Below are positions 1,294-50,834 of a stretch of DNA of 64,000 nucleotides, in pieces. Source of the stretch: Streptomyces sp. 846.5 (GTDB taxonomy: Bacteria > Actinomycetota > Actinomycetes > Streptomycetales > Streptomycetaceae); NCBI RefSeq assembly GCF_004365705.1, contig NZ_SOBN01000001.1:2652001-2716000 (forward strand), given 5' to 3'. Each line of letters opens with the position of its first letter. The stretch's first letter is position 1. Under the pieces are notes generated by a model. The model did no database searches, was not told where the DNA came from, and worked only from the letters and a program-made list of their open reading frames with translations. Position numbers and translations under genes: made by a program.

Positions 1294-4200
1294 TCAGACG
1301 CCCTGCTGGGCGGGCACGACCCGGCGCGGGGGCTTCCTCGGCTCGTCCCGCAGCCGCTGGCTGATCACCTGGGAGATGCCGTCGCCGCGCATGGAAACCC
1401 CGTAGAGCGCGTCGGCGCACTCCATGGTGAGCTTCTGATGGGTGATCACGATCAGCTGGGAGCTGTCCCGCAGCTCCTCCATCAGGCCGATCAGCCGGCG
1501 CAGGTTGGTCTCGTCCAGCGCCGCCTCGACCTCGTCCATCACATAGAACGGGCTGGGCCTGGCCTTGAAGATGGAGACCAGCAGCGCGACGGCGGTGAGC
1601 GAGCGCTCGCCGCCGGAGAGCAGCGAGAGCCGCTTGACCTTCTTCCCCGGCGGCCTGGCCTCCACCTCGATGCCGGTGGTCAGCATGTTGTCGGGGTCGG
1701 TGAGGACCAGCCGGCCCTCGCCGCCGGGGAACAGCCGCGAGAACACGCCCTCGAACTGCGCCGCGGTGTCGTGGTAGGCAGCGGTGAACACCTGCTCCAC
1801 CCGCTCGTCCACCTCCTTGACGACGGTGAGCAGGTCGCGCCGGGTGGACTTCAGGTCCTCCAGCTGCTCGCTGAGGAACTGGTGCCGCTCCTCCAGCGCC
1901 GCGAACTCCTCCAGTGCCAACGGATTGACCTTGCCGAGCTGGGTGTACGCCTTCTCCGCGGCGCGCAGCCGCTTCTCCTGCTCGGCCCGGTCGTACGGGC
2001 GGGGCTCAGCGCCCTCCGCCTCGTCGGACGCCGGCACCAGCTGGTCGGGGCCGTACTCGGCGAGCAGCCCGTCGGCCTCGATGCCGTGCTCCTCCAGCGC
2101 CTTGGCCTCCAACTGCTCTATCCGCAGCCGCTTCTCCGCGCGCAGCACCTCGTCGCGGTGGACCGAGTCGGTCAGCCGGTCCAGCTCGGCCTTGAGCTCG
2201 CGGCTGCGGACCCGCTGCTGCGACAGCTCGGCGTCATGGACCGCGCGCTCCTGCTCGGCCCGCTCCTTCTCCAGGGCCGCCGTCGCCAGCGACGCCTCGA
2301 CGGCGGTGAGCAACTGCCGGGCGCCGTCGCCGACTGCGGTGGCGACCAGCGCCTCCGCCCGCAGCCGCTGCTGCCGCTGGGCGGCGCGGGCCCGGGCCTC
2401 GCGCTCGGCGCGGGCGCCGCGGTCCAGCGAGTCCGCCCGGCCGGCGAGGCCGCGCACCCGCTCCTCATGGGTCCGGACCGAGAGCCTGGCCTCCATCTCG
2501 GCCTGCCGGCACTGCGCCGAGGCCTCGGCGAGGCGGTCCCGCTCACCGGTGTCGGGCTCCTCGTCGGCAGGAATCTCCTCCGCGGTCAGCAGCCGCTCGC
2601 TGAGCTCGGCGAGCTCGGCCTCGGCCTGCTCCAGCGCCGCCTCGGCCTTCGCCGCCGCCGCGCCGAGCCGCTCGGCCTCGCCGGCCGCGCCGCGGGCCTG
2701 GCCGCCGAGCCGCCCCAGTTGCTGGGCCACCGCGGACTTCTCCTTCTCGGCGGCCCGGCGGCGGGCGGCCAGCGCCTCGGCCTCGGCCGCCAGCTCCCGG
2801 CGGCGCGCGGTGGCCTGCTCCAGCGCGGTCGCGAGCGCCTCCCGTCGCCCCGACAGTTCCTCCAACGCGGCGGTAGCCTCGTCCACCGCGGCCTGGGTCT
2901 CCAGCAGGCTCGGCGCGGCGGCGGAGCCTCCGTACGCGAAACCCCGTCCGAGCAGATCGCCCTCGGCGGTCACCGCCGTCACCCCGGGACGGGAGCCGAC
3001 CAGCGCCTCGGCCTCCGCCAGGCCCGCGACCAGCACATAGCCGCGCAGCAACCCGCGCACGACGCCGACCAGCTCCGCCGGACCGTCCACGCACCCGGCG
3101 AGCCCGTCCCCGTCCTCACGAAGAGCGCCACCGTCCGCTGCACCGGAGGCGATCAGCAGGCCGGCCCGGCCCGCGTCCTCCTTGCGCAGCAGGCGAAGCG
3201 CCTCCACCGCCGTGCCGACGCCGTCCACCGCGACCGCGTCGGCCGCGTGGCCCAGCGCCGCCGCGACCGCCGCCTCCGCGCCCGGACGGACCGACAGCAG
3301 CGAGGCCGCCGAGCCGAGCACTCCGCCCAGTCCGTCGCCGGGGCCCCGCTCCCCCGCCGCCAGCAGCGCGCCGCTGCCGTCCTTGCGGCGCAGGCCCAGC
3401 GCCAGTGCCTCCCGACGCGCCGTCAGCCCGGCGCGTTCACGCTCCACCGAGGCCAGCTCCTCGCGGGCCCGCGACTGCGCCTCCTCCGCCTCGCCCAACG
3501 CCGTCCGCACCTCGGCGAGCTGGGCCTCGGCCTCCGCGTCGCCCGCCTCGACCCCGTCGACCTGTGCCTTGAGCAGCTCGTACTCCTCGGCGGCGGCCTC
3601 CGCCCGCTCCCGGGCGCCGTCCCTCGCCTCGGCGAGCCGACCGATCTCCTCGCCCGCGCCGACCGCGCGCGACCGCGCCGCGGCGACCCTGCCCTGCAGC
3701 CGGGCCAGCCCCTCCCGGCGGTCGGCCAGCGCGCGGGCGGCCGCGCGCAGCCGCTGCTCCTCCCCCGCCAGCTCCCGTTCCAGCTCCCCTCGCCGCTCCA
3801 CCGTCTCGGCGAGCGCGTACGACGCCTCCTCCAGCGCCTCCTTGAGCTCGGCCTCCTCCTCACGGATCCGGGCCGCCTCGCGCTCCATCTCCTCCGGGTC
3901 CCGGCCGCGCCGCTCCTCGGTCTGCTGGCTGCGGGCGTGCCGGACCCGGGCCTCGGCCAACCCGACGGTGCCGCGGACCCGCTCCGCCAGCGCGGACAGT
4001 TCGAACCAGGTCTGCTGGGACTGCTCGACCCGCGGGCCCAGCTGGGCGACCTGCGCCTCCAGCACCGCCTCCCGCTGCTGAAGCGCCGTCAGCTCCTGCT
4101 CGACCCCGGAGCGCCGCAGCCGCAGCGCCATCTCGTCGGCGACCTCCTCCTCGACCGCCTTGCGCAGCGTCACCAGGTCGTCGGCGAGTATCCGCAGCCT

Positions 4201-36533: not shown

Positions 36534-36548
36534 TTCGGTGTTGCCTTG

Positions 36549-36620
36549 CTGGGGTACCAGGACTCGAACCTAGACTAAGTGAACCAGAATCACTCGTGCT
36601 GCCAATTACACCATACCCCA
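36549..36620 (-). tRNA. tRNA-Gln (CTG anticodon), copy 1
   Basis: 72 bases; acceptor TGGGGTA/TACCCCA perfect, discriminator G73, D-loop region TGTAATTGGC, anticodon loop TTCTGGT with CTG, T-arm GGTTCGAGTCC. No encoded CCA. It differs from copy 2 by one base in the anticodon stem (C-G pair here, G-T wobble there). Confidence 0.97.
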
Positions 36621-36739
36621 AAGGGAGTTCAACCAGTTCTCCGGCGAACACTCCGGAGAGAACAATACCTGACCAACGGCATGATCCACACCAGCGACGC
36701 AGCAGGCCCCCGACCGGAGCCGGGGGCCTGCTGACCACG

Positions 36740-36812
36740 TACCCCCGACCGGATTCGAACCGGCGCTACTGCCGTGAGAGGGCAGCGTGCTAGGCCGCTA
36801 CACAACGGGGGC
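36740..36812 (-). tRNA. tRNA-Glu (CTC anticodon), copy 1
   Basis: 73 bases beginning GCCCCCGTTGTGTAGCGGCC; anticodon loop CCTCTCA with CTC; T-arm GGTTCGAATCC; no encoded CCA. Identical to the two other copies. Confidence 0.97.
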
Positions 36813-36910
36813 AAGCTTTGGTGATCCTGCTTCGTCGCCTCGGGGACCGGAGCCTTCCGGAGCGTGTCCGGTGCACGGGGTCGACCCGATGGTGAGGGTG
36901 GAGGATCTGG

Positions 36911-36983
36911 TACCCCCGACCGGATTCGAACCGGCGCTACTGCCGTGAGAGGGCAGCGTGCTAGGCCGCTACACAACGGGGGC
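36911..36983 (-). tRNA. tRNA-Glu (CTC anticodon), copy 2
   Basis: 73 bases identical to the neighbouring Glu copies; spacer to copy 1 of 98 bases, to copy 3 of 25 bases. Confidence 0.97.
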
Positions 36984-37008
36984 TTGATCTTCATCTGCTG
37001 GTGGTGCG

Positions 37009-37081
37009 TACCCCCGACCGGATTCGAACCGGCGCTACTGCCGTGAGAGGGCAGCGTGCTAGGCCGCTACACAACGGGGGC
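37009..37081 (-). tRNA. tRNA-Glu (CTC anticodon), copy 3
   Basis: 73 bases identical to the other two Glu copies, 31 bases from tRNA-Gln copy 2. Confidence 0.97.
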
Positions 37082-37112
37082 TCGCGAGAACGGATCTCGC
37101 AAGGGAACTGCG

Positions 37113-37184
37113 CTGGGGTACCAGGACTCGAACCTAGACTAAATGAACCAGAATCACTCGTGCTGCCAATTACACCATACCCCA
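37113..37184 (-). tRNA. tRNA-Gln (CTG anticodon), copy 2
   Basis: 72 bases, same as copy 1 except for one substitution (T for C) in the 3' strand of the anticodon stem giving a G-T wobble. First gene of the array in the direction of transcription. Confidence 0.97.
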
Positions 37185-37339: not shown

Positions 37340-38851
37340 TCAGCTTCCGGTGCGCTCCAGCGCGGCCCGCAGCCGGCGCAGGGTCTCCTCCCGGCCCAGC
37401 AGTTCCATCGACTCGAACAGCGGCGGCGAGACCCGGCGGCCGGTGACGGCCACCCGCAGCGGGGTGAAGGCGAACTTGGGCTTGATGCCCAGGCCGTCGA
37501 CCAGGGCGGCGCGCAGGGCGGCCTGGATGTCGTCCGGGTCGAAGCCCTCCAGCGCCTCCAGCGCGTCGATGCTGGCCTGCAGCACCGGTGCGGCGTCGGG
37601 GGTGAGCACCTTCTCGGCGTCGGCCGGGTCGAGGGCGAAGTCCTCGGGGGCGACGAAGAGGAAGCCGAGCATGCCGACGACCTCGCCGAGCACGACCATC
37701 CGCTCCTGGGTCAGCGGGGCGGCCGCGATCAGCAGGTCCAACTGGGCGTCGGTCGGGCCCTCGGCGGCGAACAGGCCGGCCGCGGTGAGGTAGGGGATCA
37801 GCCGCCGGACGAACTCGGCCGGCGCCAGGGCGCGCAGGTGCTCGGCGTTGATCGCCTCGGCCTTCTTGAGGTCGAACCGCGCCGGATTGGCGTTCACCTT
37901 GGCGATGTCGAAGGCGGCGACCATCTCCTCCATGGAGAAGCGGTCCCGGTCCTCGGCCAGCGACCAGCCCAGCAGCGCCAGGTAGTTGAGCAGCCCCTCG
38001 GGCAGGAAGCCGCGCTCGCGGTAGAGGTTGAGCGAGGCCTGCGGGTCGCGCTTGGACAGCTTCTTGTTGCCCTCGCCCATGACGTACGGCAGGTGCCCGA
38101 ACTGCGGCGTCGGCCCGGTGGCGATGCCCAGCTCGGCCAGCGCCCCGTAGAGCGCGATCTGCCGGGGGGTGGAGGACAGCAGGTCCTCGCCGCGCAGCAC
38201 GTGGGTGATCCCCATCAGTGCGTCGTCCACCGGGTTGACCAGGGTGTAGAGCGGCGCGCCGTTGGCCCGGACGATGCCGTAGTCCGGCACGTTCTCCGGG
38301 GTGAAGGTCAGCTCGCCGCGGACCAGGTCGGTGAAGGTGATCGGCGCGTCGGGCATCCAAAAGCGGACGATCGGCTTGCGCCCCTCCGCCTGGTACGCCG
38401 CGATCTGCTCGGCGCTCAGGGCGCGGCAGTGGCCGTCGTAGCCGGAGGGCCGGCCGGCCGCGCGGGCGGCCTCGCGGCGGGCGTCCAGCTCCTCGGTGGA
38501 GCAGTAGCAGTGGTAGGCGCGGCCGGACTCCAGCAGTTTGGCGGCAACGTCGGCGTAGATGTCCATCCGCTGCGACTGCCGGTAAGGCGCGTGCGGCCCC
38601 CCGACCTCGGGCCCCTCGTCCCAGTCGAAGCCCAGCCAGCGCATCGCGTCCAGCAGCTGGTTGTAGGAGTCCTCCGAGTCGCGGGCCGCGTCGGTGTCCT
38701 CGATCCGGAACACCAGGGTGCCGCCGTTGTGCCGGGCGAAGGCCCAGTTGAACAGGGCGGTGCGGACCAGGCCGACGTGCGGGTTGCCGGTCGGGGAGGG
38801 ACAGAAGCGGACCCGGACGGTGGGGTCGAGCTCGCTTGCGGTGTTAGCCAC
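37340..38851 (-). CDS. gltX: Glutamyl-tRNA synthetase (probably non-discriminating)
   Basis: A 503-residue class I synthetase: the HIGH-type motif in [11 protein letters not shown] (residues 17-27) and the KMSKS-type motif KKLSKRDP. It charges tRNA-Glu; in actinobacteria lacking GlnRS it also mischarges tRNA-Gln for repair by GatCAB. Its two tRNA substrates are encoded immediately downstream. The ATG at 38851 overlaps the FAH-family stop by 8 bases, so the two genes are translationally coupled. Confidence 0.97.
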
Positions 38852-39626
38852 GCTTGATCACCTTGTTGGTGAGAGTGCCGATGCCTTCGATGGAGACGGC
38901 GACCTCGTCGCCGACGTTCAGGGGGCCGACACCCGCCGGGGTGCCGGTGAGGATGACGTCGCCGGGGAGCAGCGTCATCGCCTCGGTGATGTGGACGATG
39001 AGGTCCGCCACCGAGCGCACCATCTGCGAGGTGCGGCCGGCCTGGCGCAGCTCCCCGTTGACGGTGCAGGTGATCGCCAGGTCGGCCGGGTCGAGGTCGG
39101 TCTCGATCCAGGGGCCGAGCGGGCAGGAGGTGTCGAAGCCCTTGGCCCTGGCCCACTGGCCCTCGCGCTGCTGGACGTCGCGCGCGGTCACGTCGTTGGC
39201 GCAGGTGTAGCCGAAGACCACCTCGGGCACCCGCTCGTGCGGCACGTCGCGGCACATCCGGCCGATGACCACGGCCAGCTCGGCCTCGTACTGGACGTCG
39301 GAGGAGAACGGCGGGTAGGCGATGTTCTCGGTGGGGCCGACCACGGCGGTCGAGGGCTTGAAGAAGGTGAGCGGAACCTCGGGGACCTCGTTGCCGAGCT
39401 CCGCCGCGTGGGCGGCGTAGTTGCGCCCTACCGCGACGATCTTGTTGGGGAGCATCGGGGGCAGCAGCCGCACGTCCTTGAGCGGCAGGACCTGGCCGGT
39501 GGGCTGCAGGTCGCCGAAGGGGTGGCCGGAGAGCACATGCAGGGTCAGCGCCTCCGGTCGGGTGGCGTCCCCCTCGACGACACCGAAGGAAACGGTCCCC
39601 TCACTGGAAAACCTGGCGATACGCAC
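38844..39626 (-). CDS. Fumarylacetoacetate hydrolase-family protein
   Basis: A 260-residue FAH-fold protein with the metal-binding residues in [25 protein letters not shown] and [13 protein letters not shown], and the C-terminal [13 protein letters not shown]. Members hydrolyse or isomerise C-C bonds of acylpyruvates or catechol breakdown products; many core-genome copies act as oxaloacetate decarboxylase or tautomerase. Exact substrate cannot be read from sequence. ATG at 39626; overlaps gltX, a pairing that I recall as conserved in Streptomyces. Confidence 0.9.
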
Positions 39627-39688
39627 GGTGGCTGCTGTCCTCTTCGGGCTCGCGAACGGTGGTGCCGCCAGCCTATCCGCCGATACGC

Positions 39689-39725
39689 CGAAGGCCCTGC
39701 CGGTTTGCGGCCGGCAGGGCCTTCG
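39689..39725. terminator. Hairpin terminator after the TANPRRT-repeat gene
   Basis: Arms CGAAGGCCCTGCCGG and CCGGCAGGGCCTTCG around a short loop; 13 bases beyond the stop of the small gene. It insulates that gene from the FAH gene downstream. Confidence 0.82.
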
Positions 39726-39738
39726 GTGGCGCGCGGGG

Positions 39739-39930
39739 TCAGTCCTTGACCGCCTGCGCCGGAGCGACCATCAGGTTGGTACGCCGCGGGTTGGCGGTCG
39801 TGCGGGGCAGTTCGGCCTGCTCGGTCGCGGAGCTGCGGAGCGCAGGGGCGCCGTCGACGGGCAGGGAGGCGAGAGTCGTCCGGCGCGGGTTTGCGGTCGG
39901 ACGGAAGCTCATCGTCGTCTTGGTGGACAC
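39739..39930 (-). CDS. Unrecognised 63-residue protein with duplicated TANPRRT motif
   Basis: GTG at 39930 with GAGGTAG eight bases upstream, and a strong terminator 13 bases after the stop, so it looks like a real independent gene. The protein reads VSTKTTMSFRPTANPRRTTL at its start and contains the heptapeptide TANPRRT twice (residues 12-18 and 45-51), each followed by T/N-L and a hydrophobic stretch ending in a small acidic or Ala-rich segment. Basic, no Cys, no signal peptide, no membrane segment. Neighbours are the gltX pair and conservon 1. I do not recognise a family. It could be a nucleic-acid-binding or protein-docking peptide; a peptide natural product precursor is less likely, since no modification enzymes are adjacent. 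Confidence 0.7.
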   Translation of the reverse strand: MSTKTTMSFRPTANPRRTTLASLPVDGAPALRSSATEQAELPRTTANPRRTNLMVAPAQAVKD

Positions 39931-40468
39931 GCGGACTACCTCACAGGGGCAGAAGGGCGGAAGATCGGATGCGCATCAGGATCTCATTCCACACAGGAGC
40001 CGCCTCGCACTACCTCAACTCCTGTGATTTTGCTCACTTCTAACCCACGGAGTTCCGACAGTTACGACATTGTGCCCTGTTGAGACAAACAGACATCACG
40101 GGGCAGACCGGACAAAATCATCACGGGGCGTAATGCCGTTCGAACACGCGGCATGCTGCTACTGTCCGAAACGTGCGGTATTCCAGGGGGATCGACGCAC
40201 AATCTGTCAAGGGGGAGCCGCAGAGAGTAACCGAAGTGGCTACACTGCGTCGCCCCTTGTTGCAGGTGCGGCACTGTGCTGAAATTCCACGGACCGCCGG
40301 AGGCCGCCCCTCCACTGCGCTACTGCCAGCGCCGGGGCCCAACTCCTACGGCGGCACGGGCACACAACAGGGTCTGCTGAAACAGGACCCGGGCCCGCCC
40401 GAAACTCGACACCGTCCTGCTTCCGCGTACGCGTGGACAGGGCGCCTGGTCCAGAGGTTGCGACGCTA
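39931..40468. other. Long regulatory region upstream of conservon 1
   Basis: About 540 bases, markedly lower in GC around 39970-40200. Contains the promoter of the small minus-strand gene (not located), an 11-bp direct repeat CATCACGGGGC at 40094-40104 and 40119-40129, and the predicted cvnA1 promoter at 40257-40285. Short open frames on both strands lack ribosome sites and family resemblance. Confidence 0.5.
40257..40285 (+). promoter_or_regulatory. Predicted promoter of conservon 1
   Basis: TTGTTG, 17-bp spacer, TGAAAT (40280-40285). The -10 lies in the 14-mer GTGCTGAAATTCCA (40276-40289), repeated exactly upstream of conservon 2. The mRNA leader would be about 175 nt. Confidence 0.55.
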
Positions 40469-43400
40469 GTGCAGGGACGTATCAAGAGGGGTGGCGGCGG
40501 CCCGGGCGACCCGGCGGACCGCGAAGCAGCCGTTCGTCAGCAGCAGGCGCCCACGGCGCCGACTGCCGACCCGGGCCGAGAGGGCGGTTCCACCGGCAGC
40601 CGACAGCGGACCGCTGACGCCGCGAAGGCCCGAATAGGGCGGCTCACCCCGACCCGGGTCACCGGCATCAAGCGCTATGCGCTGAGCAACTGGCGTATCC
40701 GGACCAGGCTGACCGCACTGCTGATCCTCCCGGTGATCGCGGCCATGGTGCTGGGTGGTTTCCGCATCCAGGCGTCCCTGCAGACCCAGCAGCAGCTCGC
40801 CAAGGCCTCCCAGCTGGGTGGGATCGCGCAGAGCGCGACCCTGCTCGCCACCGCGCTGGAGAACGAGCGCGACACCGCGGCCGGCATCTCCACCGCCACC
40901 GGCGACAAGACGGCGGACGCGATCCAGGCGGCCCAGAAGATCACCGCCACCCGGCGGATCAACTTCACCACGCTGACCAACAGCCTGGACTCGGCCACCC
41001 TGCCCGGCAACGGCGTCGACATCACCAGTATCAACAGCAGCCTGCAGGGGCTCGGCGACATCCGGGCGAACTCGTTCTCCCGCGGCGGCACCAACATCCT
41101 TCAGTCCGTCAACTCCTACGACAAGCTGATCACGCCGCTGCTGACGCTCAGCCAGGACATCGCCCTGGCCTCCAGCAACGCCCAGCTGATCCAGAGCACC
41201 CGTGCGCTGCAGGAGTTCTCGCTCTGGAAGGAGAGCCAGTCCATCATCCGCGCGGTGATCAGCGCCGGACTGGCCTCCAAGCCGCAGACGCTGCAGGTCG
41301 GTGACCGGGCCTACGCCGCAGCCGCCTTCGCCGACGCCCAGAGCGCCCAGACGGCCTTCGAGCGCCTCTACGGCGGCGGTGTCACCGCGGCCCAGGCGTT
41401 CAGCGCCACCTGGGCCAACAACATCAACGTCAAGAACGCGACGCGACTCACCACCACCGTCCTGCAGTCCGCCGAAGGCTTCGCCGCCTACCCGAACCTC
41501 CCGCAGTACGCCGACTGGGACGCCGAGGCGACCACCCAGATCAGCCTGATGAGCCAGGCCGAGAACGTCCTGGTCCTCGGCCTGAACGCGCAGACCAGCA
41601 GCCTGAGCAGCGCGGCCAGGACCGACGCGATCGTCAACTCGGTGCTGATCGGCCTGGTCCTGCTGGTCGCCATCGTCGGCGCCGTGATCGTGGCCCGCTC
41701 CATGGTCCGCACGCTGAGCAAGATGCAGCACGCGGCCGAGGACGTCGCCGAGAACCGGCTGCCGGAACTGGTCCGCACGCTGTCCGAGTCGGACCCGCAG
41801 GACGTGGACACCTCGGTCGCACCGATCGGCATCAACACCACGGACGAGATCGGCCACGTGGCCCGAGCGTTCGACCAGGTGCACGCCCAGGCCGTCCGCC
41901 TCGCCGCCGAGCAGGCGCTGCTGCGAGGCAACATCAACGCGATGTTCACCAACCTCTCGCGCCGCTCCCAGGGCCTGATCCAGCGCCAGCTGTCGATGAT
42001 CTCCGAGCTGGAGAGCCGCGAGGCCGACCCGGACCAGCTGGCCAGCCTCTTCAAACTGGACCACCTCGCCACCCGTATGCGCCGTAACGGCGAGAACCTG
42101 CTGGTCCTCGCGGGTGAGGACCCGGGCCGCCGGTGGACCCGCCCGGTTCCGCTGGTCGACGTGCTCCGCGCCGCCGCCTCCGAGGTGGAGCAGTACGAGC
42201 GCATCGAACTGGCCTCGGTGCCCACCGCCGACGTCGCCGGACGGGTCGTCAACGACCTCGTCCACCTGCTCGCCGAGCTGCTGGAGAACGCGACCTCGTT
42301 CTCCAGCCCGCAGACCCGGGTCCGGGTCACCGGCCACGCGCTGCCGGACGGCCGGGTGCTGGTCGAGATCCACGACACCGGCATCGGCCTCTCCCCCGAC
42401 GACCTGGCCGAGATCAACGAGCGGCTGGCGAACCCGCCGGTGGTGGACGTCTCCGTCTCCCGCCGCATGGGCCTGTTCGTGGTCGGTCGACTCTCGCTGC
42501 GCCACGGCATCCGGATCCAGCTGCGCCCCAGCGACTCCGGCGGCACCACCGCGCTGGTCATGCTGCCCGTGGACGTCACCAACGCGGCCGAGCGCCGCGG
42601 CGGTTCGGCCGGTCCCGGCCAGCAGCGTCCGCAGGGCGCGCCCGGCCAGGGCGGTCAGAACCCCGGCGCGCCGGGCAGCGTGGGCATGCAGCAACAGCGC
42701 GGCGCGATGCCGCAGGCACCCGGTCGCGCGCCGCTGGGAGGCAGCCCCTCGGGCGGCCCCGGCGGGCGTCCCTCGCTGCCCCCGCAGCCCGGTCCGCAGC
42801 AGCCCGGCCTGCCCCAGCGCGGCGACACCCCGGGGCTGCCCCAGGGCTCCTCGCCGATGGGCGCCCCGGCGCCCGGCGGTCGCCCCGGCGGCCAGCAGCA
42901 GCCGGCCCACGCCCAGCAGGACCCGACTCTGCGGACCATGGCGCAGCAGGGCCCCGGCCCGCAGCAGCGCGGACCGCAGGGACCCCAGCAGGGCATGCAG
43001 CAGCCCGGCATGCAGCCGCCGGTCCCGCTGGACGAGCAGGGCCTGTGGAGCGAGCAGCCGCAGCACGGATCGCCGGCCCCGACCGGACGGCCCCAGGCCC
43101 CGGCCGGACGGCCTTCGGTCCCGGCCGGCCAGTCGGCCCCTGACGCGATGGAGAGCACCGCGCAGTTCGCCCGACCGCACTTCGACGAGGAGCCGGCCCG
43201 GCCGATCCCGCCGCAGCCGATGCCGCCGCGGCCGGTCGAGCCTCAGGCGTTCGCGCCGCAGCAGCCCCAGCGTCCGCAGCAGCAGATGCCGCCCCAGCAG
43301 CAGGTCCCGCAGCAGCAGGCCCCGGCCCAGCCGGTGGCGCTTCCCTCCGCCGACGCGGCGAACCACCCGCTGACCCGGGCCCTGCCGCCGGCCGAGGCCG

Positions 43401-44080
43401 GCGCGGGCAGCTCGCCGATCTTCGAGGCGATGGAGTCCAACTGGTTCCGCAGCGGCCGTGCCGACCGGATGCGGGCCGTGCAGGTGACGGCCCCGGCCGA
43501 GACCGCAAGTCCGGAGCAGGCGGCCCCGCAGGCCCCTGCGCCGCAGCGGCCCTCGCAGAACCGCTTCCAGCGCCCCGGCACCTCGGCGCCCCAGCCCCCC
43601 GTCCAGCAGGGGCCGGGCTCCGTGCAGCCGCAGCAGTCCCAGGCCCCGCAGGCCGAGACATGGCAGCGTCCCTCCGCCCCGGCGGGCGACGCGCCGTTCG
43701 GCGCGCCGCAGCGGGCGCGGCGCGGAGTCGGCGAGTCCATGCCGGCAGGCGCCAGCGCCGCCGGTCAGTGGCGGACCTCCGCCAACGACGAGGTGTGGCG
43801 CCGGGCCGAGCAGGTCCGTGAACCCAGTGCCGGCGGGGTGCTGCCCTCGGGTCTCCCCCGCCGGGTGCCCAAGGCCAACCTGGTCCCGGGCACCGCCGAA
43901 TCCGTCCCGCCGGAAGGTCCGCAGAGCCAGGTGTCCCGTTCGCCCGAGGAGGTCCGCGGCCGGCTCACCAACCTGCGCCGCGGCATCCAGCAGGGACGCC
44001 AGGCCGGCGCAGGCGGCTCCAACCAGGCCAACCCCGGCGGCAATGCGGGCCCGTACGGCACCAACCCCCAGGAGCGTTGA
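40469..44080 (+). CDS. cvnA1: CvnA1, membrane histidine-kinase-like protein of conservon 1
   Basis: About 1203 residues. After a basic start, TM1 (about 80-98), a 290-residue extracytoplasmic nitrate/nitrite-sensor (NIT)-like domain, TM2 (about 390-412), a HAMP linker, a helical dimerisation region with LFKLDHLATRMRRNGENLLV, an HATPase domain (N-box ENATSF near 607, G1 box DTGIGLS near 636) and a 500-residue Pro/Gln/Gly-rich tail. The last 60 residues regain conservation (GLPRRVP, RSPEEVRGRLTNLRRGIQQG), as in CvnA2. Conservon A proteins resemble sensor kinases and, with the roadblock and GTPase proteins B-D, form a membrane complex compared with eukaryotic G-protein signalling. GTG at 40469 chosen; AGAGG 11 bases upstream. 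An in-frame GTG at 40433 has no ribosome site. Confidence 0.9.
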   Translation: MQGRIKRGGGGPGDPADREAAVRQQQAPTAPTADPGREGGSTGSRQRTADAAKARIGRLTPTRVTGIKRYALSNWRIRTRLTALLILPVIAAMVLGGFRIQASLQTQQQLAKASQLGGIAQSATLLATALENERDTAAGISTATGDKTADAIQAAQKITATRRINFTTLTNSLDSATLPGNGVDITSINSSLQGLGDIRANSFSRGGTNILQSVNSYDKLITPLLTLSQDIALASSNAQLIQSTRALQEFSLWKESQSIIRAVISAGLASKPQTLQVGDRAYAAAAFADAQSAQTAFERLYGGGVTAAQAFSATWANNINVKNATRLTTTVLQSAEGFAAYPNLPQYADWDAEATTQISLMSQAENVLVLGLNAQTSSLSSAARTDAIVNSVLIGLVLLVAIVGAVIVARSMVRTLSKMQHAAEDVAENRLPELVRTLSESDPQDVDTSVAPIGINTTDEIGHVARAFDQVHAQAVRLAAEQALLRGNINAMFTNLSRRSQGLIQRQLSMISELESREADPDQLASLFKLDHLATRMRRNGENLLVLAGEDPGRRWTRPVPLVDVLRAAASEVEQYERIELASVPTADVAGRVVNDLVHLLAELLENATSFSSPQTRVRVTGHALPDGRVLVEIHDTGIGLSPDDLAEINERLANPPVVDVSVSRRMGLFVVGRLSLRHGIRIQLRPSDSGGTTALVMLPVDVTNAAERRGGSAGPGQQRPQGAPGQGGQNPGAPGSVGMQQQRGAMPQAPGRAPLGGSPSGGPGGRPSLPPQPGPQQPGLPQRGDTPGLPQGSSPMGAPAPGGRPGGQQQPAHAQQDPTLRTMAQQGPGPQQRGPQGPQQGMQQPGMQPPVPLDEQGLWSEQPQHGSPAPTGRPQAPAGRPSVPAGQSAPDAMESTAQFARPHFDEEPARPIPPQPMPPRPVEPQAFAPQQPQRPQQQMPPQQQVPQQQAPAQPVALPSADAANHPLTRALPPAEAGAGSSPIFEAMESNWFRSGRADRMRAVQVTAPAETASPEQAAPQAPAPQRPSQNRFQRPGTSAPQPPVQQGPGSVQPQQSQAPQAETWQRPSAPAGDAPFGAPQRARRGVGESMPAGASAAGQWRTSANDEVWRRAEQVREPSAGGVLPSGLPRRVPKANLVPGTAESVPPEGPQSQVSRSPEEVRGRLTNLRRGIQQGRQAGAGGSNQANPGGNAGPYGTNPQER

Positions 44081-44085
44081 TTCAG

Positions 44086-44508
44086 ATGAGTCAGATGTCC
44101 CAAGCGGCACACAATCTGAACTGGTTGATCACCAATTTCGTGGACAACACCCCCGGGGTGTCGCACACGGTGGTGGTCTCCGCCGACGGCCTCCTGCTCG
44201 CCATGTCCGAGGGCTTCCCGCGGGACCGTGCCGACCAGCTGGCCGCGGTCGCCTCCGGGCTGACCTCGCTCACCCAGGGCGCCTCCCGGATCTTCGAAGG
44301 CGGCCGGGTCACCCAGACCGTGGTCGAGATGGAACGCGGCTTCCTGTTCATCATGGCCGTCTCCGACGGATCCTCACTCGCCGTCCTCGCCTCCCCCGAC
44401 AGCGACATCGGCCTGGTCGGCTACGAAATGGCCCTCCTCGTCGACCGCACCGGTGACGTGCTGACCCCGGCACTCCGGACGGAGCTCCAAGGCAGCCTGC
44501 TCCACTGA
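44086..44508 (+). CDS. cvnB1: CvnB1, roadblock/LC7 protein of conservon 1
   Basis: A 140-residue roadblock/LC7 domain protein (LNWLITNFVDNTPGVSHTVV, LLLAMSEGFPRDRADQLAAV, ASGLTSLTQGASRIF), related to MglB-type regulators of small GTPases; presumed GAP or scaffold for CvnD. The ATG at 44086 is chosen by comparison with cvnB2, where the same MSQMSQAA start follows the A stop directly. Bases 44137-44447 are identical to cvnB2 (311 bp without a mismatch). Confidence 0.93.
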   Translation: MSQMSQAAHNLNWLITNFVDNTPGVSHTVVVSADGLLLAMSEGFPRDRADQLAAVASGLTSLTQGASRIFEGGRVTQTVVEMERGFLFIMAVSDGSSLAVLASPDSDIGLVGYEMALLVDRTGDVLTPALRTELQGSLLH

Positions 44509-44598
44509 GGCATGCCGCTCCATCCGGGCACACACTCCCTCGCACCAACCCCACGCCGCGGAGAGGCACGACGGACCGCTGCAGCTCAAGGAGGACAG

Positions 44599-45057
44599 AT
44601 GACCCCGCCCCAAGGCTCCACCGGTCCGTACGGCAATCCGTACGGCGGCGGCTCGTACGGCGGCCAGCAGGGACCGCACGGCTCGCACGGCTCGCAGTCG
44701 CCCCAGGGGGGTGCCCGCCAGCCGCTGGTGCGCCCCTACGCCATGACCGGCGGACGGACCCGGCCGCGCTACCAGCTCGCCATCGAGGCCCTCATCTCCA
44801 CCACGGCCCAGGCCGACCGGGCGGGCACACTGCTTCCCGAGCACGCCCGGATCGTCCAGCTGTGCCGTGAGGTCAAGTCGGTCGCCGAGGTCAGCGCGCT
44901 GGTCCCGATGCCGCTGGGCGTGGCCCGCATTCTCGTAGCCGACCTGGCCGAAGCCGGCCTGGTCGCCATCCACCAACCTGCGGCCGCCTCCGAATCGGGC
45001 GGAACGCCGGACGTCACACTGCTCGAAAGGGTGCTCAGTGGACTTCGGAAGCTCTAG
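44599..45057 (+). CDS. cvnC1: CvnC1, DUF742 protein of conservon 1
   Basis: A 152-residue DUF742 protein: Gly/Tyr/Ser-rich N-terminus, then VRPYAMTGGRTRPRYQLAIE, the hallmark of the family, and a winged-helix-like C-terminus. ATG at 44599 with AAGGAGGACAG immediately upstream. Role in the complex unknown. Its end overlaps cvnD1 by 20 bases. Confidence 0.93.
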   Translation: MTPPQGSTGPYGNPYGGGSYGGQQGPHGSHGSQSPQGGARQPLVRPYAMTGGRTRPRYQLAIEALISTTAQADRAGTLLPEHARIVQLCREVKSVAEVSALVPMPLGVARILVADLAEAGLVAIHQPAAASESGGTPDVTLLERVLSGLRKL

Positions 45058-45646
45058 GCCCGCGGCGCCCTTCGCGCCGGCCCCACCCGCCCCGCACCGG
45101 GCCACCACCTCGGCGAAGATCGTCGTGGCCGGCGGCTTCGGGGTGGGCAAGACGACCCTGGTCGGCGCGGTCTCCGAGATCAACCCGCTGCGCACCGAGG
45201 CCGTGATGACCAGCGCCTCGGCCGGCATCGACGACCTGACGCACATCAGCGGGAAGACCACCACCACGGTGGCCATGGACTTCGGTCGCATCACCCTGGA
45301 CGAGGACCTGATCCTCTACCTGTTCGGCACCCCCGGACAGGACCGCTTCTGGTTCATGTGGGACGACCTGGTCCGCGGCGCCATCGGCGCCGTCGTCCTG
45401 GTCGACACCCGCCGCCTCGCCGACTGCTTCCCCGCCATCGACTACTTCGAAAACAGCGGACTGCCCTTCGTCGTCGCCCTCAACGCCTTCGACGGCAACC
45501 AGACCCACAACCCCGACGAAGTCCGCGAAGCCCTCCAACTCGGCCCCGACACCCCCGTCATCACCACCGACGCCCGCCGCCGCGACAGCGCCAAATCCGC
45601 ACTCATCACCCTCGTCGAACACGCACTCCTCGCCCGACTCCGCTGA
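45038..45646 (+). CDS. cvnD1: CvnD1, Ras-like small GTPase of conservon 1
   Basis: A 202-residue GTP-binding protein: P-loop GGFGVGKTT, G3 FGTPGQDRFWF (with Gln in the switch II position as in Ras Gln61), G4-type NAFD. It is the G-protein of the module and overlaps cvnC1, implying coupled translation. Its last 372 bases (45275-45646) match cvnD2 exactly, a sign of gene conversion. The Pro/Ala-rich N-terminal 25 residues are unlike cvnD2. Confidence 0.95.
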   Translation: MDFGSSRPAAPFAPAPPAPHRATTSAKIVVAGGFGVGKTTLVGAVSEINPLRTEAVMTSASAGIDDLTHISGKTTTTVAMDFGRITLDEDLILYLFGTPGQDRFWFMWDDLVRGAIGAVVLVDTRRLADCFPAIDYFENSGLPFVVALNAFDGNQTHNPDEVREALQLGPDTPVITTDARRRDSAKSALITLVEHALLARLR

Positions 45647-45797
45647 GGCTCTGCATAACAGTTCGACACGCAATTCATTCACAAAAATCACCACAGGTGA
45701 CCACATGCACACGGAATGCCTACCAGCGGGTGAGCATTCGCCGCAATCAGCTCCTTATGTCCTATTTATCGTCAGTAAGCGGACCTACCAGGGGTGT

Positions 45798-45827
45798 TTG
45801 GCCCGTACCGCGCGTACGTGCTGAAAT
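45798..45827 (+). promoter_or_regulatory. Predicted promoter of conservon 2
   Basis: TTGGCC, 18-bp spacer, TGAAAT (45822-45827) within the 14-mer GTGCTGAAATTCCA (45818-45831) shared with conservon 1. The 150 bases ahead (45647-45790) are AT-richer than the surroundings and may bind regulators. Confidence 0.55.
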
Positions 45828-45894
45828 TCCAGCGATCCGCGCAGATCAGTAGCACGCTCAGAAATGGCCGCCCCGGCCGAGAGGTTGTTGTCGA

Positions 45895-48800
45895 GTGAGG
45901 CAGAAGCAGGCAGACCCTGGACCGCGGCAGGCCGAGCCCCAGCCCGTGGACGGCGGTGGCTCCAGCTGGGCCTTCCGCCACTGGCGCGTGCCCACCCGGC
46001 TGACGGCCATCGTGCTGGTCCCCGTGGTCACCGGACTGGTCTTCGCGGGGCTGCGCGTCAAGGACCAACTGGACCTCGCCAGCACCGCCGGGCAGAACGA
46101 GAAGGTCGCCATCCTGGTCCGGGACGCCGGCACGGTGGCCGATGACCTCGAGACCGAGCGCGACCTCGCGGTCATCCCGCAGATGATGGGCGACCATCAG
46201 AACGCCCAAGTGCTGGCCGCGCGCAAGAAGACGGACGCGGACATCGCGGTGATGGACGCCGACGCCGCACAGGTCAAGCCCGACCTGCAGATCAGCACCG
46301 ACCTCAGCAACTTCCACGCCACGGCCGCCAAGACTCTCAACAACCTGCGGGACAAGGGCTACGACGTCACCAGCCAGACCTACAGCCCGGTCGCCACCGA
46401 GGTGGCGTACTCCAACATCTACCTGGGCCTGCTGGGGCTGGACAACGAACTCGCCTTCGGCGACAAGAACATCAACAGCCGCGGTCGTGAGCTCTTCGCG
46501 CTGAGCCTGGAGAAGGAGTCCACCGCGACCGAGCGCAACCTGGTCACCATCGCGCTGATGTACGACAAGATGCCGTCGCAGCTCGCGGACGCGATCCAGG
46601 TGGCCGGGCGCCTCACCCAGGTCACCGAGCAGCAGGTGCTGCTCTCCGGTGTCCCCTCGGACCTCAAGCTCTACCAGCAGACCGTGATCGGCCAAGGCAT
46701 CGCCTCGGCCGAGGGCACCCTGCTGGCGATGGCGGGCAAGCCCTCGCTCAAGTCCTCCGGGATCACCCCGGTCTCCTGGTACACCCTGGCCAGCCAGAAG
46801 ACCGGCCAGGAACGCAAGGTCGAGACGGCCATCACCAGCCAGGTCCTCGCCGACGCGCACCAGGCCAAGCAGGACGCCAACCAGCAGGCCATCACCATCG
46901 GCGCCGAGGCGCTGGCGCTGGTGCTGCTGGCCGGCGCGCTGGCCTACCTGATGGGCCGCTCGATGGTGCGCGGTATGCGTACCCTGCGCGACAGCGCCAC
47001 CGGCATCGCCACCGACCGGCTGCCGGACCTGGTCCGCAAGCTCTCCAAGACCGACCCCGAGCGCGTCGACACCACCGTCCGGCCGATCCCGCTGACCGGC
47101 CGTGACGAGATCGGCGAGGTCGCCCGGGCGTTCGACGAGGTCCACCGCGAGGCCATCCGACTGGCCTCCGAGCAGGCCATGCTCCGCGGGAACGTCAACG
47201 CGATCTTCACCAACCTGTCCCGTCGCTCCCAGAGCCTGATCGAGCGTCAGCTGTCGCTGATCACCGACCTGGAGAACAACGAGGCGGACCCGGACCAGCT
47301 GGAGAGCCTGTTCAAGCTGGACCACCTGGCCACCCGTATGCGCCGCAACGGCGAGAACCTGCTGGTCCTCGCGGGCGAGTCGGCGGGCCGCGAGTGGAGC
47401 GACCCGATCCCGCTGGTGGACGTGCTCCGCGCGGCCGCCTCCGAGGTGGAGCAGTACGAGCGCATCGAGCTCAGCGGCATACCCGAGACCGACGTCATCG
47501 GTCCGGCCGTGACCGACATGGTGCACCTCCTCGCGGAGCTGCTGGAGAACGCCACCACCTTCTCCAGCCCGCAGACCCGGGTGAAGGTCACCGCCACCCG
47601 GCTGCCGGACCAGCGGGTGCTGGTCGAGATCCACGACAAGGGCATCGGCCTCACCGCCGCCGACTTCGCCGAGATCAACGCCAAGCTGGCCGACCCGCCC
47701 ACGGTCGACGCCTCGGTCTCCCGCCAGATGGGCCTGTTCGTGGTCGGCCGGCTGGCCGAGCGCCACGCCATCCGGGTCCAGCTGCGTCCCTCCGGCGAGT
47801 CCGCCGGCACCACCTCGCTGGTGATGATCCCGGACCACCTCACCCAGCTGCCCCGGGCCGCCGAGCCCGAGGAGCAGTTCACCGTCTCCCGGATCTACGG
47901 CGAGCCCGAGGCGGGCCCGTACGCGGAGTCCGGCCAGCTGACCGCCAGCGAACTGGGCTTCGACGACAGCCGCTACGACCGTCCCGCCGTGGACGTGCCG
48001 GCCGCCGTCGCCCCCGACCACCTGATGCAGCGCACCATGCGGCTCGGCCAGCGGCGCGAGCAGGCGGCGCTGGAGGGCCCGGGCGAGGGCGCACCGGCCG
48101 CGCAGCAGCCGTCGGCCCCGGCCCCCGCGCCGCAGCCGGGAGAGACGTACGAGCCCTACCCCGACTCCTACGTCCCCGAGTTCGACGGCTTCGACGCCCG
48201 GCCGGCCGCCGCCTCCTACCCCGCGCCCGACGCCGGCTACGAGGCGGGCAGCTACACCGCCGCCGACTTCGACACCTACGGCGCCGGGAACGGGACCGCG
48301 AACGGGAACGGGAACGGGAACGGTCGGCAGTACCAGCAGCAGGACCAGTACCAGCCCGACCCCTCGTACGACACCCCGCAGTTCAGCACCGCGCAGTACG
48401 GCCAGGACCCGTACGTCCCCGAGCAGTACCAGGCCTACCAGCCGGACCAGTACGGTCACCAGCAGTACCCCGACAGCACCTCCGAGCCCCAGTACGGTCA
48501 CCCGTACTACCCGGAGACCCCGCAACCCGCCCCAGCACCTGCCCCCGAGGCGCCCGTGGCTCCCCTCCCCCCCGCATCCCGTCCGGCGGCCAACAACGCG
48601 CCGGCGGCCCTGCCCCAGCGGCCCAGCTCCCCGGTTCCGTCTCCCCCGGGCGGCTCCGCGAACGGCTCGCTCCCCACCCGCCGTCCCGGCCAGGCACTGG
48701 GCGGCGGCCGGGCGATCGGCGACCGAGAGGCCGGTGAACGGCCCAACTGGTTCACCGGAGCCCGCGAGGACGGCGACCCGGCCACGGTGGCCATGCCGTC

Positions 48801-49089
48801 CCTCTCGCTCCCGACCGTGCCCGCGGAGCCCGTCGCCGGGGGTACCACCCCGGCCGGACTCCCGCGTCGCGTACCCCGCCAGAACCTGCTTCCCGGCAAT
48901 GTCCAGGAGCCGAGCAGCGCAGTACCGGACGCCTCCCCACAGCTGTCCCGTTCCCCCGAGGAGGTCCGCGGCCGGCTCACCAACCTGCGCCGCGGCATCC
49001 AGCAGGGGCACAACGCAGGCGACACCCCTTCCCCCGACCAGCACGGGGCAGCCGGACTCTTCGGCGGCCCGAACCACCCGGAGCGTTAG
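45895..49089 (+). CDS. cvnA2: CvnA2, membrane histidine-kinase-like protein of conservon 2
   Basis: A 1064-residue paralog of CvnA1. TM1 about 31-50, extracytoplasmic NIT-like domain, TM2 about 337-356, HAMP, helical region LFKLDHLATRMRRNGENLLV, HATPase (N-box ENATTF near 550, DKGIGLT), then a Tyr/Gln/Pro-rich tail with a (GN)n run from a GGGAAC hexamer repeat (48286-48324), and the shared end motif RSPEEVRGRLTNLRRGIQQG. The sensor domain differs from CvnA1, so the two conservons probably respond to different signals while feeding near-identical B and D proteins. GTG at 45895, GAGAGG upstream. Stop abuts the cvnB2 start. Confidence 0.92.
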   Translation: MRQKQADPGPRQAEPQPVDGGGSSWAFRHWRVPTRLTAIVLVPVVTGLVFAGLRVKDQLDLASTAGQNEKVAILVRDAGTVADDLETERDLAVIPQMMGDHQNAQVLAARKKTDADIAVMDADAAQVKPDLQISTDLSNFHATAAKTLNNLRDKGYDVTSQTYSPVATEVAYSNIYLGLLGLDNELAFGDKNINSRGRELFALSLEKESTATERNLVTIALMYDKMPSQLADAIQVAGRLTQVTEQQVLLSGVPSDLKLYQQTVIGQGIASAEGTLLAMAGKPSLKSSGITPVSWYTLASQKTGQERKVETAITSQVLADAHQAKQDANQQAITIGAEALALVLLAGALAYLMGRSMVRGMRTLRDSATGIATDRLPDLVRKLSKTDPERVDTTVRPIPLTGRDEIGEVARAFDEVHREAIRLASEQAMLRGNVNAIFTNLSRRSQSLIERQLSLITDLENNEADPDQLESLFKLDHLATRMRRNGENLLVLAGESAGREWSDPIPLVDVLRAAASEVEQYERIELSGIPETDVIGPAVTDMVHLLAELLENATTFSSPQTRVKVTATRLPDQRVLVEIHDKGIGLTAADFAEINAKLADPPTVDASVSRQMGLFVVGRLAERHAIRVQLRPSGESAGTTSLVMIPDHLTQLPRAAEPEEQFTVSRIYGEPEAGPYAESGQLTASELGFDDSRYDRPAVDVPAAVAPDHLMQRTMRLGQRREQAALEGPGEGAPAAQQPSAPAPAPQPGETYEPYPDSYVPEFDGFDARPAAASYPAPDAGYEAGSYTAADFDTYGAGNGTANGNGNGNGRQYQQQDQYQPDPSYDTPQFSTAQYGQDPYVPEQYQAYQPDQYGHQQYPDSTSEPQYGHPYYPETPQPAPAPAPEAPVAPLPPASRPAANNAPAALPQRPSSPVPSPPGGSANGSLPTRRPGQALGGGRAIGDREAGERPNWFTGAREDGDPATVAMPSLSLPTVPAEPVAGGTTPAGLPRRVPRQNLLPGNVQEPSSAVPDASPQLSRSPEEVRGRLTNLRRGIQQGHNAGDTPSPDQHGAAGLFGGPNHPER

Positions 49090-49512
49090 ATGAGCCAGAT
49101 GTCCCAGGCGGCACAGAACCTCAACTGGTTGATCACCAACTTCGTGGACAACACCCCCGGGGTGTCGCACACGGTGGTGGTCTCCGCCGACGGCCTCCTG
49201 CTCGCCATGTCCGAGGGCTTCCCGCGGGACCGTGCCGACCAGCTGGCCGCGGTCGCCTCCGGGCTGACCTCGCTCACCCAGGGCGCCTCCCGGATCTTCG
49301 AAGGCGGCCGGGTCACCCAGACCGTGGTCGAGATGGAACGCGGCTTCCTGTTCATCATGGCCGTCTCCGACGGATCCTCACTCGCCGTCCTCGCCTCCCC
49401 CGACAGCGACATCGGCCTGGTCGGCTACGAAATGGCCCTCCTCGTCGACCGTGCCGGTACCGTACTCACCCCCGCGCTCCGCGCCGAGCTCCAAGGCAGC
49501 CTGCTCCACTGA
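49090..49512 (+). CDS. cvnB2: CvnB2, roadblock/LC7 protein of conservon 2
   Basis: 140 residues; differs from CvnB1 only at a handful of positions near both ends (for example DRAGTVLTPALRAEL against DRTGDVLTPALRTEL). The ATG at 49090 directly follows the cvnA2 TAG. Central 311 bp identical to cvnB1. Confidence 0.94.
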   Translation: MSQMSQAAQNLNWLITNFVDNTPGVSHTVVVSADGLLLAMSEGFPRDRADQLAAVASGLTSLTQGASRIFEGGRVTQTVVEMERGFLFIMAVSDGSSLAVLASPDSDIGLVGYEMALLVDRAGTVLTPALRAELQGSLLH

Positions 49513-49606
49513 CTGCGCGCAACACCGGCACCACCTGCACCCGCACCGCCTGCACACGTTCAGCAAGAGCCGTAACGCCCCTGTCGCTCAACTGTGAGGA
49601 GGACCC

Positions 49607-50254
49607 GTGACACCGCCCGAGGACCAGAACGGCCAGTACGGCACCGGCTACCCCGGTTCAGGCCACGATGCGTTCGGTGGTCCCGGCGGCGGCTACGCCC
49701 CGGGCTACCCCAGCTATGAGCAGGAGCAGCGCAACGGCTACGGCGGCAACCCGTACCAGGAGAACCCCTACTCCAACGGCAACGGCCAGGCGCCCCGGGG
49801 GAACCCCGAGCCCAACGCGCCCACCACCAGCGGCACCGGATCCGGCTACAACAGCCGTCCGTCGTACGCCGACGACTGGACCCGGCAGCCGGCCCAGGAA
49901 CCGGAGATGGACGAGGAGCCGCTGATCCGGCCCTACGCCATGACCGGCGGACGGACCCGGCCGCGCTACCAGCTCGCCATCGAGGCCCTGGTCTCCACCA
50001 CCGCGCCGCCCGAGCGGATCGGCACGCTGCTCCCCGAACACCAACGGATCTGCGGTCTCTGCCTGGAGATCAAGTCCGTGGCCGAGATCTCGGCTCTGCT
50101 TTCCATGCCTCTCGGCGTGGCCCGCATCCTCGTCGCCGACCTGGCCGAATCCGGTCTGGTCGCGATCCACCAACCCGCTGCCGGAGGCGAATCCGGCGGC
50201 ACGCCAGACGTGACACTGCTCGAAAGGGTGCTCAGTGGACTTCGCAAGCTCTAG
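49607..50254 (+). CDS. cvnC2: CvnC2, DUF742 protein of conservon 2
   Basis: A 215-residue DUF742 protein; the Gly/Tyr/Asn-rich N-terminus is 60 residues longer than in CvnC1 while the IRPYAMTGGRTRPRYQLAIE core and C-terminus match. GTG at 49607 follows GAGGAGGA. The core carries a stretch of about 50 bases identical to cvnC1. Overlaps cvnD2 by 20 bases. Confidence 0.93.
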   Translation: MTPPEDQNGQYGTGYPGSGHDAFGGPGGGYAPGYPSYEQEQRNGYGGNPYQENPYSNGNGQAPRGNPEPNAPTTSGTGSGYNSRPSYADDWTRQPAQEPEMDEEPLIRPYAMTGGRTRPRYQLAIEALVSTTAPPERIGTLLPEHQRICGLCLEIKSVAEISALLSMPLGVARILVADLAESGLVAIHQPAAGGESGGTPDVTLLERVLSGLRKL

Positions 50255-50834
50255 GCCCGCGCCACCGGCGGCCGCCACCGGAGCCCGCACGACCACCTCG
50301 GCGAAGATCGTCGTGGCCGGCGGCTTCGGGGTGGGCAAGACGACCCTGGTCGGCGCGGTCTCCGAGATCAACCCGCTGCGCACCGAGGCCGTGATGACCA
50401 GCGCCTCGGCCGGCATCGACGACCTCAGCCATGTGGCCGACAAGACCACGACCACGGTCGCGATGGACTTCGGTCGCATCACCCTGGACGAGGACCTGAT
50501 CCTCTACCTGTTCGGCACCCCCGGACAGGACCGCTTCTGGTTCATGTGGGACGACCTGGTCCGCGGCGCCATCGGCGCCGTCGTCCTGGTCGACACCCGC
50601 CGCCTCGCCGACTGCTTCCCCGCCATCGACTACTTCGAAAACAGCGGACTGCCCTTCGTCGTCGCCCTCAACGCCTTCGACGGCAACCAGACCCACAACC
50701 CCGACGAAGTCCGCGAAGCCCTCCAACTCGGCCCCGACACCCCCGTCATCACCACCGACGCCCGCCGCCGCGACAGCGCCAAATCCGCACTCATCACCCT
50801 CGTCGAACACGCACTCCTCGCCCGACTCCGCTGA
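50235..50834 (+). CDS. cvnD2: CvnD2, Ras-like small GTPase of conservon 2
   Basis: A 199-residue GTPase with P-loop GGFGVGKTT, FGTPGQDR and NAFD, all as in CvnD1. Differences from CvnD1 are confined to the N-terminal 25 residues and a short patch near residue 65 (DLSHVADK against DLTHISGK). Last gene of the conservon, followed by a strong terminator. Confidence 0.95.
   Translation: MDFASSRPAPPAAATGARTTTSAKIVVAGGFGVGKTTLVGAVSEINPLRTEAVMTSASAGIDDLSHVADKTTTTVAMDFGRITLDEDLILYLFGTPGQDRFWFMWDDLVRGAIGAVVLVDTRRLADCFPAIDYFENSGLPFVVALNAFDGNQTHNPDEVREALQLGPDTPVITTDARRRDSAKSALITLVEHALLARLR

What the first reader, a model, noticed from the sequence alone, without database searches (positions are those of the whole stretch)
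39739..39930. Unrecognised small gene with a duplicated TANPRRT motif beside conservon 1
A 63-residue basic protein with ribosome site and own terminator carries TANPRRT twice, 33 residues apart, each in a similar context. I know no described family with this motif. The regular spacing suggests a peptide binding two equal partners, for example a dimer or two RNA or DNA sites.
Basis: partly seen in the sequence, partly recalled or inferred. Interest (0 to 1): 0.55.

Follow-up and report, generated by a model that had tools for sequence, protein, structure and literature searches.

The report
Conserved twin-motif small protein beside conservon
Nearly every member of the antibiotic-making Streptomyces family carries a tiny, probably unfolded protein whose only strongly conserved feature is the same short motif twice; its gene sits next to a signalling operon, it matches no known protein family, and its function is unknown but now testable.

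Summary
Window 39739-39930 (-) encodes 63 residues with TANPRRT at 12-18 and 45-51. The family is in 247 of 249 sampled Streptomycetaceae genomes, and in 0 of 15 sister-family genomes. Pfam, NCBIfam, PADLOC and PDB give no hit. ANPRRTxL is almost invariant in both copies; pN/pS is 0.021 in the motifs, 0.581 elsewhere. Spacing runs 30-49 and charge -2 to +7, so "basic" and "regular spacing" do not generalise. AlphaFold2 predicts no fold. The gene lies divergent to cvnA1 in 86 of 86 loci. In two genomes the block small gene-cvn1-cvn2 is inverted as one unit, away from fahA-gltX. Best reading: a disordered protein whose two equal linear motifs clamp two copies of a homodimeric partner, most likely in the Cvn1 G-protein system; the partner is inferred. 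Against: one lineage lost the gene but kept both conservons. Five loci with a single conservon still have both motifs, so one motif per conservon is unlikely.

The parts
39739..39930 (-). Small gene, 63 aa, two ANPRRTxL motifs in an otherwise variable chain
   Evidence: 86 unique homologues, motif pN/pS 0.021 vs rest 0.581 within the genus
39877..39897 (-). Motif copy 1, TANPRRT (residues 12-18)
   Evidence: A N P R R T identical in 86, 86, 86, 85, 86, 86 of 86
39778..39798 (-). Motif copy 2, TANPRRT (residues 45-51)
   Evidence: A N P R R T identical in 86, 86, 85, 80, 86, 82 of 86
39688..39726 (-). Perfect 16-bp hairpin between the small gene and fahA, likely terminator (no T-run)
   Evidence: a perfect stem of 9 or more bp in 16 of 78 loci tested, so not general
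40023..40037 (-). Conserved palindrome GTGA[GC][CG]AAA[AC]TCACA upstream of the small gene; CRP/GlxR-type spacing
   Evidence: 46 nt before a TAxCCT/TAxGCT -10-like hexamer in 49 of 90 loci that have the box; absent in genera g2 and g4
38844..39626 (-). fahA (FAA hydrolase family), downstream neighbour with its own promoter-like -10
37340..38851 (-). gltX, glutamate-tRNA ligase
   Evidence: TIGR00464 above cut-off
40433..44080 (+). cvnA1, histidine-kinase-like sensor with NIT domain and HATPase, divergent to the small gene
44083..45646 (+). cvnB1, cvnC1, cvnD1 (assigned by position and by similarity to their cvn2 copies)
45895..50831 (+). cvn2 (second conservon cvnA2-D2), moves with the small gene and cvn1 in the inversions

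Best explanation
The gene encodes an intrinsically disordered, bivalent linear-motif protein of the Streptomycetaceae. It carries two copies of ANPRRTxL on a flexible, usually acidic linker. Each copy docks into the same pocket of a partner, so one small protein clamps the two equal subunits of a homodimer. The most likely partner is in the divergently encoded Cvn1 G-protein module: the CvnA1 kinase dimer or the roadblock protein CvnB1. The small protein would then tune the output of that module. Shown here: the gene, the two motifs, selection on the motifs, predicted lack of fold, family-wide occurrence, own regulatory region, and co-movement with cvn1-cvn2. Inferred: direct binding, the homodimer, the identity of the partner, and the effect on signalling.
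For: Family in 247 of 249 Streptomycetaceae genomes sampled. Both motifs nearly invariant while synonymous sites in the motifs vary as much as elsewhere (motif pS 0.304, rest 0.346 in the genus), so selection is on the protein. In the divergent genera g2 and g4 the flanks and linker differ strongly yet both motifs persist. Variable spacing (30-49) fits a flexible tether. AlphaFold2 mean pLDDT 60.8, pTM 0.17. cvnA1 adjacent and divergent in 86 of 86 unique-protein loci, fahA adjacent in 82 of 86. In both rearranged genomes read in full, small-cvn1-cvn2 is inverted as one block away from fahA-gltX. The order's sister families have fahA-gltX but no cvnA next to fahA (5 of 5 loci examined) and no small gene (0 of 15 genomes).
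Against: No physical or genetic interaction was tested. One lineage (G027) lost the small gene yet keeps both conservons, so Cvn1 does not strictly need it. CvnA1 has its own NIT sensor domain, whereas the known accessory proteins CvnE/CvnF go with CvnA proteins that lack one (PMC13343842, passages). Adjacency could reflect only a shared divergent regulatory region. A weak AlphaFold2 model from 19 sequences does not prove disorder.
Confidence: 0.4

Rival explanations
1. A bivalent motif protein whose partner is not Cvn1 but another family-wide homodimer (for example a developmental regulator or a cell-division protein); it sits next to cvn1 only because the two genes share a divergent, developmentally controlled regulatory region.
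For: The cvn1 promoter is reported as bound by BldC and BldD (PMC6428758, passages), WhiB (PMC4850268, one figure-legend passage), WblC (PMC7157823, passages) and ScbR/ScbR2 (PMC4595836, table passages). Cvn1 and Cvn2 are retained in the lineage that lost the small gene.
Against: The gene stays with cvn1-cvn2 through an inversion, though a shared promoter region would give the same result.
Confidence: 0.35
2. A cis-acting leader peptide or attenuator that controls fahA-gltX.
For: Same strand, directly upstream in 82 of 86 loci, with a strong hairpin in between in the window.
Against: fahA has its own TAxxCT -10-like hexamer about 50 nt before its start in most loci; a perfect hairpin is present in only 16 of 78; the gene separates from fahA in rearranged genomes; no Glu-rich stretch; selection on two internal amino-acid motifs rather than on RNA.
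Confidence: 0.05
3. A two-core precursor of a ribosomally made, modified peptide.
For: Short, two identical conserved segments, variable linker.
Against: No maturation enzyme among the neighbours read (fahA, gltX, cvn1, cvn2); family-wide and normally one match per genome; no family hit.
Confidence: 0.04
4. A small nucleic-acid- or ribosome-binding protein using two Arg-Arg motifs.
For: Each motif has RR, and the window protein has net charge +5.
Against: Charges across the family run -2 to +7 with a linker of median -4; conserved Asn-Pro and a spaced Leu suggest a peptide-docking motif rather than charge alone (inference).
Confidence: 0.12

Closest known systems
CvnF/CvnE accessory proteins of actinobacterial G-protein systems (PMC13343842, passages read)
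   Same: Additional protein encoded with a conservon; CvnF8 binds and stimulates its CvnA kinase
   Different: CvnF has a GAF domain and CvnE is a P450; they go with CvnA proteins lacking a sensor domain. This protein matches no domain family, is divergently transcribed, and CvnA1 has a NIT sensor domain.
SCO5545 of S. coelicolor, 'putative uncharacterized protein' (PMC4595836, table passage)
   Same: Probable orthologue: it lies across the same intergenic region from cvnA1, and the 24-nt site sequence printed for that pair closely resembles the aligned intergenic stretch of locus L070 (comparison by eye)
   Different: Its protein sequence was not read here; no function found. The term sco5545 alone gave 0 papers.
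Proteins with duplicated short linear motifs (general kind, recalled)
   Same: Disordered chain, short motif repeated, variable linker
   Different: No match of ANPRRTxL to a family was found; TANPRRT occurs in 0 papers of the library

Membership tests
CvnF/CvnE-type conservon accessory protein | GAF domain (CvnF) or cytochrome P450 (CvnE) | tested here: not met
   0 Pfam and 0 NCBIfam families
CvnF/CvnE-type conservon accessory protein | Accompanies a CvnA that lacks an extracytoplasmic sensor domain | tested here: not met
   CvnA1 has PF08376 NIT, E 9e-25
CvnF/CvnE-type conservon accessory protein | Genetic linkage to a conservon | tested here: met
   86 of 86 loci adjacent to cvnA; moves with cvn1-cvn2
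CvnF/CvnE-type conservon accessory protein | Binds the cognate CvnA | not testable with these tools
   No complex prediction or binding assay available
Leader peptide of fahA-gltX | Shares the transcript with the downstream operon and stays upstream of it | tested here: not met
   fahA has its own -10-like element in most loci; separated in rearranged genomes
RiPP precursor | Maturation enzyme nearby | tested here: not met
   Neighbours fahA, gltX, cvn1, cvn2; an enzyme elsewhere in the genome was not sought
Bivalent linear-motif protein (working description) | Two near-invariant motifs in a freely varying chain | tested here: met
   of 86, L087 alone has both copies altered (ANPQRT, ANVRRT)
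Bivalent linear-motif protein (working description) | Intrinsic disorder | tested here: inconclusive
   AlphaFold2 pLDDT 60.8, pTM 0.17 from 19 sequences
Bivalent linear-motif protein (working description) | Both motifs bind the same partner site | not testable with these tools
   No binding assay or complex prediction available

The most novel reading that the evidence does not exclude
This is a new class of conservon component, a disordered bivalent clamp specific to Streptomycetaceae. Its two ANPRRTxL motifs engage both subunits of a homodimeric Cvn1 protein. In most members, where CvnB1/CvnB2 and CvnD1/CvnD2 are near-identical, it could also bridge the twin Cvn1 and Cvn2 systems so that two different sensors share one G-protein output.
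Probability: 0.2. Interest if true: 0.75.

Novelty: new variant of a known kind. Interest (0 to 1): 0.5.

Why it matters
A cvn1 null mutant of S. coelicolor is reported to be impaired in antibiotic production and aerial growth (Takano 2011 as cited in PMC9739842 and PMC6428758, passages only), but what the Cvn1 complexes bind is open. A family-wide gene with an almost invariant docking motif next to it gives a small bait: mutate one or both ANPRRT copies and see what is lost. It also shows how a core gene of a heavily studied group can stay without a family model because it is short and varies outside two motifs.

Tried and rejected
Rejected: chance ORF (247 of 249 genomes, protein-level selection). 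DNA-level function of the repeated sequence (synonymous variation in the motif is close to the rest; only two ANPRRT-coding sites of the pattern searched in this 9-Mb genome, both in this gene). Phage or plasmid origin (no hit in phages, plasmids or viral contigs; the best PHROGs match is E 0.014, that family matching 6 of 19 members, taken as chance). One motif per conservon: five loci from g2/g4 have a single conservon within the 15 kb read but two motifs (L139-L143; L141's small gene is below that script's cut-off and was read as L107). BldD as the factor at the palindrome: the BldD box TNAC(N)5GTNA (PMC4151990, passages) has the opposite arrangement; the CRP/GlxR form GTG(N)8CAC (PMC10033298, passages) fits. 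Crp itself was not tested, and Rex (recalled) has a similar frame.

Led nowhere: papers on 'SCO5545', 'TANPRRT' and S. venezuelae or S. lividans tags (tags recalled or guessed; only the sco5544-5545 table was found); searches on Crp motifs and Streptomyces small proteins gave no mention that I read of this gene. A likeness between the CvnA tail GLPRRVPKANLVPG and NPRRTxL is noted only as a lead.

Bias to state: the 86 proteins were picked with a script that requires an ANPx(R/K-like)T first motif and an AN(P/V)xR(T/I/V) second one, so invariance of those letters is partly by construction. The check that does not depend on it: of 79 loci fetched by tblastn or HMM before that script, 77 fit a two-motif pattern and the other two are one genome with indels; 20 of 20 further loci, chosen by hand from HMM/tblastn hits to include the weakest, hold at least the first motif and a recognisable second. 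Of 119 loci then held, 101 gave such an ORF, and 15 duplicates were dropped to reach 86. One search dropped 8 of 86 loci where no fahA start was found by pattern.

Full report
What is there. Window 39739-39930 on the minus strand encodes 63 residues from a GTG with a GTGAGG ribosome site. TANPRRT occurs at residues 12-18 and 45-51. In composition shuffles of the protein an identical 7-mer pair arises in 8 of 200,000. A 16-bp perfect hairpin follows the gene (39688-39726). No family in Pfam, NCBIfam or PADLOC matches and no PDB chain.

It is a family. tblastn in 61 genomes found it in all 14 of the window's genus; locus titles and matching contig lengths identify that genus as Streptacidiphilus. 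A profile of 24 rows (A1) found it in 247 of 249 Streptomycetaceae genomes. The two without are G027 (98% complete) and G161 (71% complete). In an order sample all 132 Streptomycetaceae genomes have it and 0 of 15 genomes of the two sister families. In the class sample every strong hit lies in Streptomycetaceae; seven genomes of other families give weak, partial matches (E 0.002-0.01) that I take as chance. In the phylum sample 9 of 296 match at E 1e-4, all Streptomycetaceae. A DNA pattern requiring both motifs matched 31 of 394 class genomes, all Streptomycetaceae.

What selection sees. Across 86 unique proteins the letters A N P R R T are kept in 86, 86, 86, 85, 86, 86 (copy 1) and 86, 86, 85, 80, 86, 82 (copy 2), and the following L in 84 and 85 (partly by construction, see Tried and rejected). 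Both copies are exact ANPRRT in 75 of 86. Among 13 Streptacidiphilus sequences pN/pS is 0.021 in the motifs and 0.581 elsewhere, with similar pS; among all 86 it is 0.061 and 0.916. The rest of the chain drifts: spacing 30-49, net charge -2 to +7, length 53-88. In genera g2 and g4 little but the motifs is shared. AlphaFold2 gives pLDDT 60.8 and pTM 0.17. The picture is of two docking motifs on a flexible string.

Where it sits. The neighbours are fahA and gltX downstream and cvnA1 upstream, divergent. Of 86 loci, cvnA is adjacent in 86 and fahA in 82. In two of the four exceptions, read in full (G136, G076), the order is acc-small-cvn1-cvn2-fahA-gltX, that is, the block small-cvn1-cvn2 is inverted as a unit (the acc gene is named by me from its sequence). 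In the other two (G121, G139) fahA lies on another contig near its end, which fits a rearrangement but was not read further. Five of five sister-family loci with enough sequence (L102, L103, L108-L110) have fahA, four of them seen with gltX beside it on the same side and the fifth (L102) likewise, without an adjacent cvnA or small gene. The simplest reading is that the small gene came with, and moves with, the conservon block.

Regulation. Between the genes is a conserved palindrome, GTGA[GC][CG]AAA[AC]TCACA. It was found in 90 loci and lies 46 nt from a TAxCCT/TAxGCT hexamer on the small gene's side in 49 of these 90; 26 have no such hexamer in range, the rest lie at other distances. It fits the CRP/GlxR form GTG(N)8CAC (PMC10033298, passages). 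Identity of the factor is inferred only. The box is missing in g2 and g4. Published ChIP work places BldC, BldD, WhiB, WblC and ScbR/ScbR2 at the cvn1 promoter or the sco5544-5545 region (passages only).

Mechanism. The best reading is a disordered bivalent clamp for a homodimer, with Cvn1 the leading candidate. A link of each motif to one of the twin conservons was tested and is unlikely: five loci of g2 and g4 have one conservon in the 15 kb read and still two motifs. Loss of the gene in G027 with both conservons kept shows it is not strictly needed. My confidence is about 0.98 that the gene is real, about 0.75 that the two motifs are docking sites on a flexible chain, and about 0.4 that the partner is in Cvn1; these are judgements.

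Known or new. No earlier description of the motif was found and no paper in the library names SCO5545 alone; supplementary files and subscription papers were not searched. It is not a CvnE or CvnF protein by domain. I rate it a new variant of a known kind: a lineage-specific linear-motif protein attached to a known signalling module.

Noticed in passing
window 44083-50831; loci L136-L138, L144-L152: In these loci CvnB1/CvnB2 are 94-99% and CvnD1/CvnD2 92-100% identical within a genome while the CvnA N-terminal parts are 26-34% identical (no CvnD pair matched in L146): two different sensors appear to feed one shared, concertedly evolving output module.
   Followed up: partly
L136 (G136), L137 (G076): Local inversion of the whole block small gene-cvn1-cvn2 between an accB-like gene and fahA.
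   Followed up: yes
L138 and L100 (G027): Loss of the small gene with both conservons and the palindrome retained upstream of fahA; a natural test of dispensability.
   Followed up: partly
L025 1447-1467: A third in-frame TANPRRT-coding stretch lies in the leader just after the -10-like TAGCCT, with no ATG or GTG in frame before it; origin unexplained.
   Followed up: no
L014 and L037 (L037 near 3985-4015): Indels in motif 1 in a genome of 76% estimated completeness; probably sequencing errors.
   Followed up: partly
window 36548-37184 (-): Five tRNA genes downstream of gltX: Gln(CTG), three Glu(CTC), Gln(CTG).
   Followed up: no
window 40433-44080 and 45895-49089, C-terminal tails: The otherwise low-complexity CvnA tails share GLPRRVPxxNLxPG and RSPEEVRGRLTNLRRGIQQG, likely docking motifs of their own; the first vaguely resembles NPRRTxL.
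   Followed up: partly
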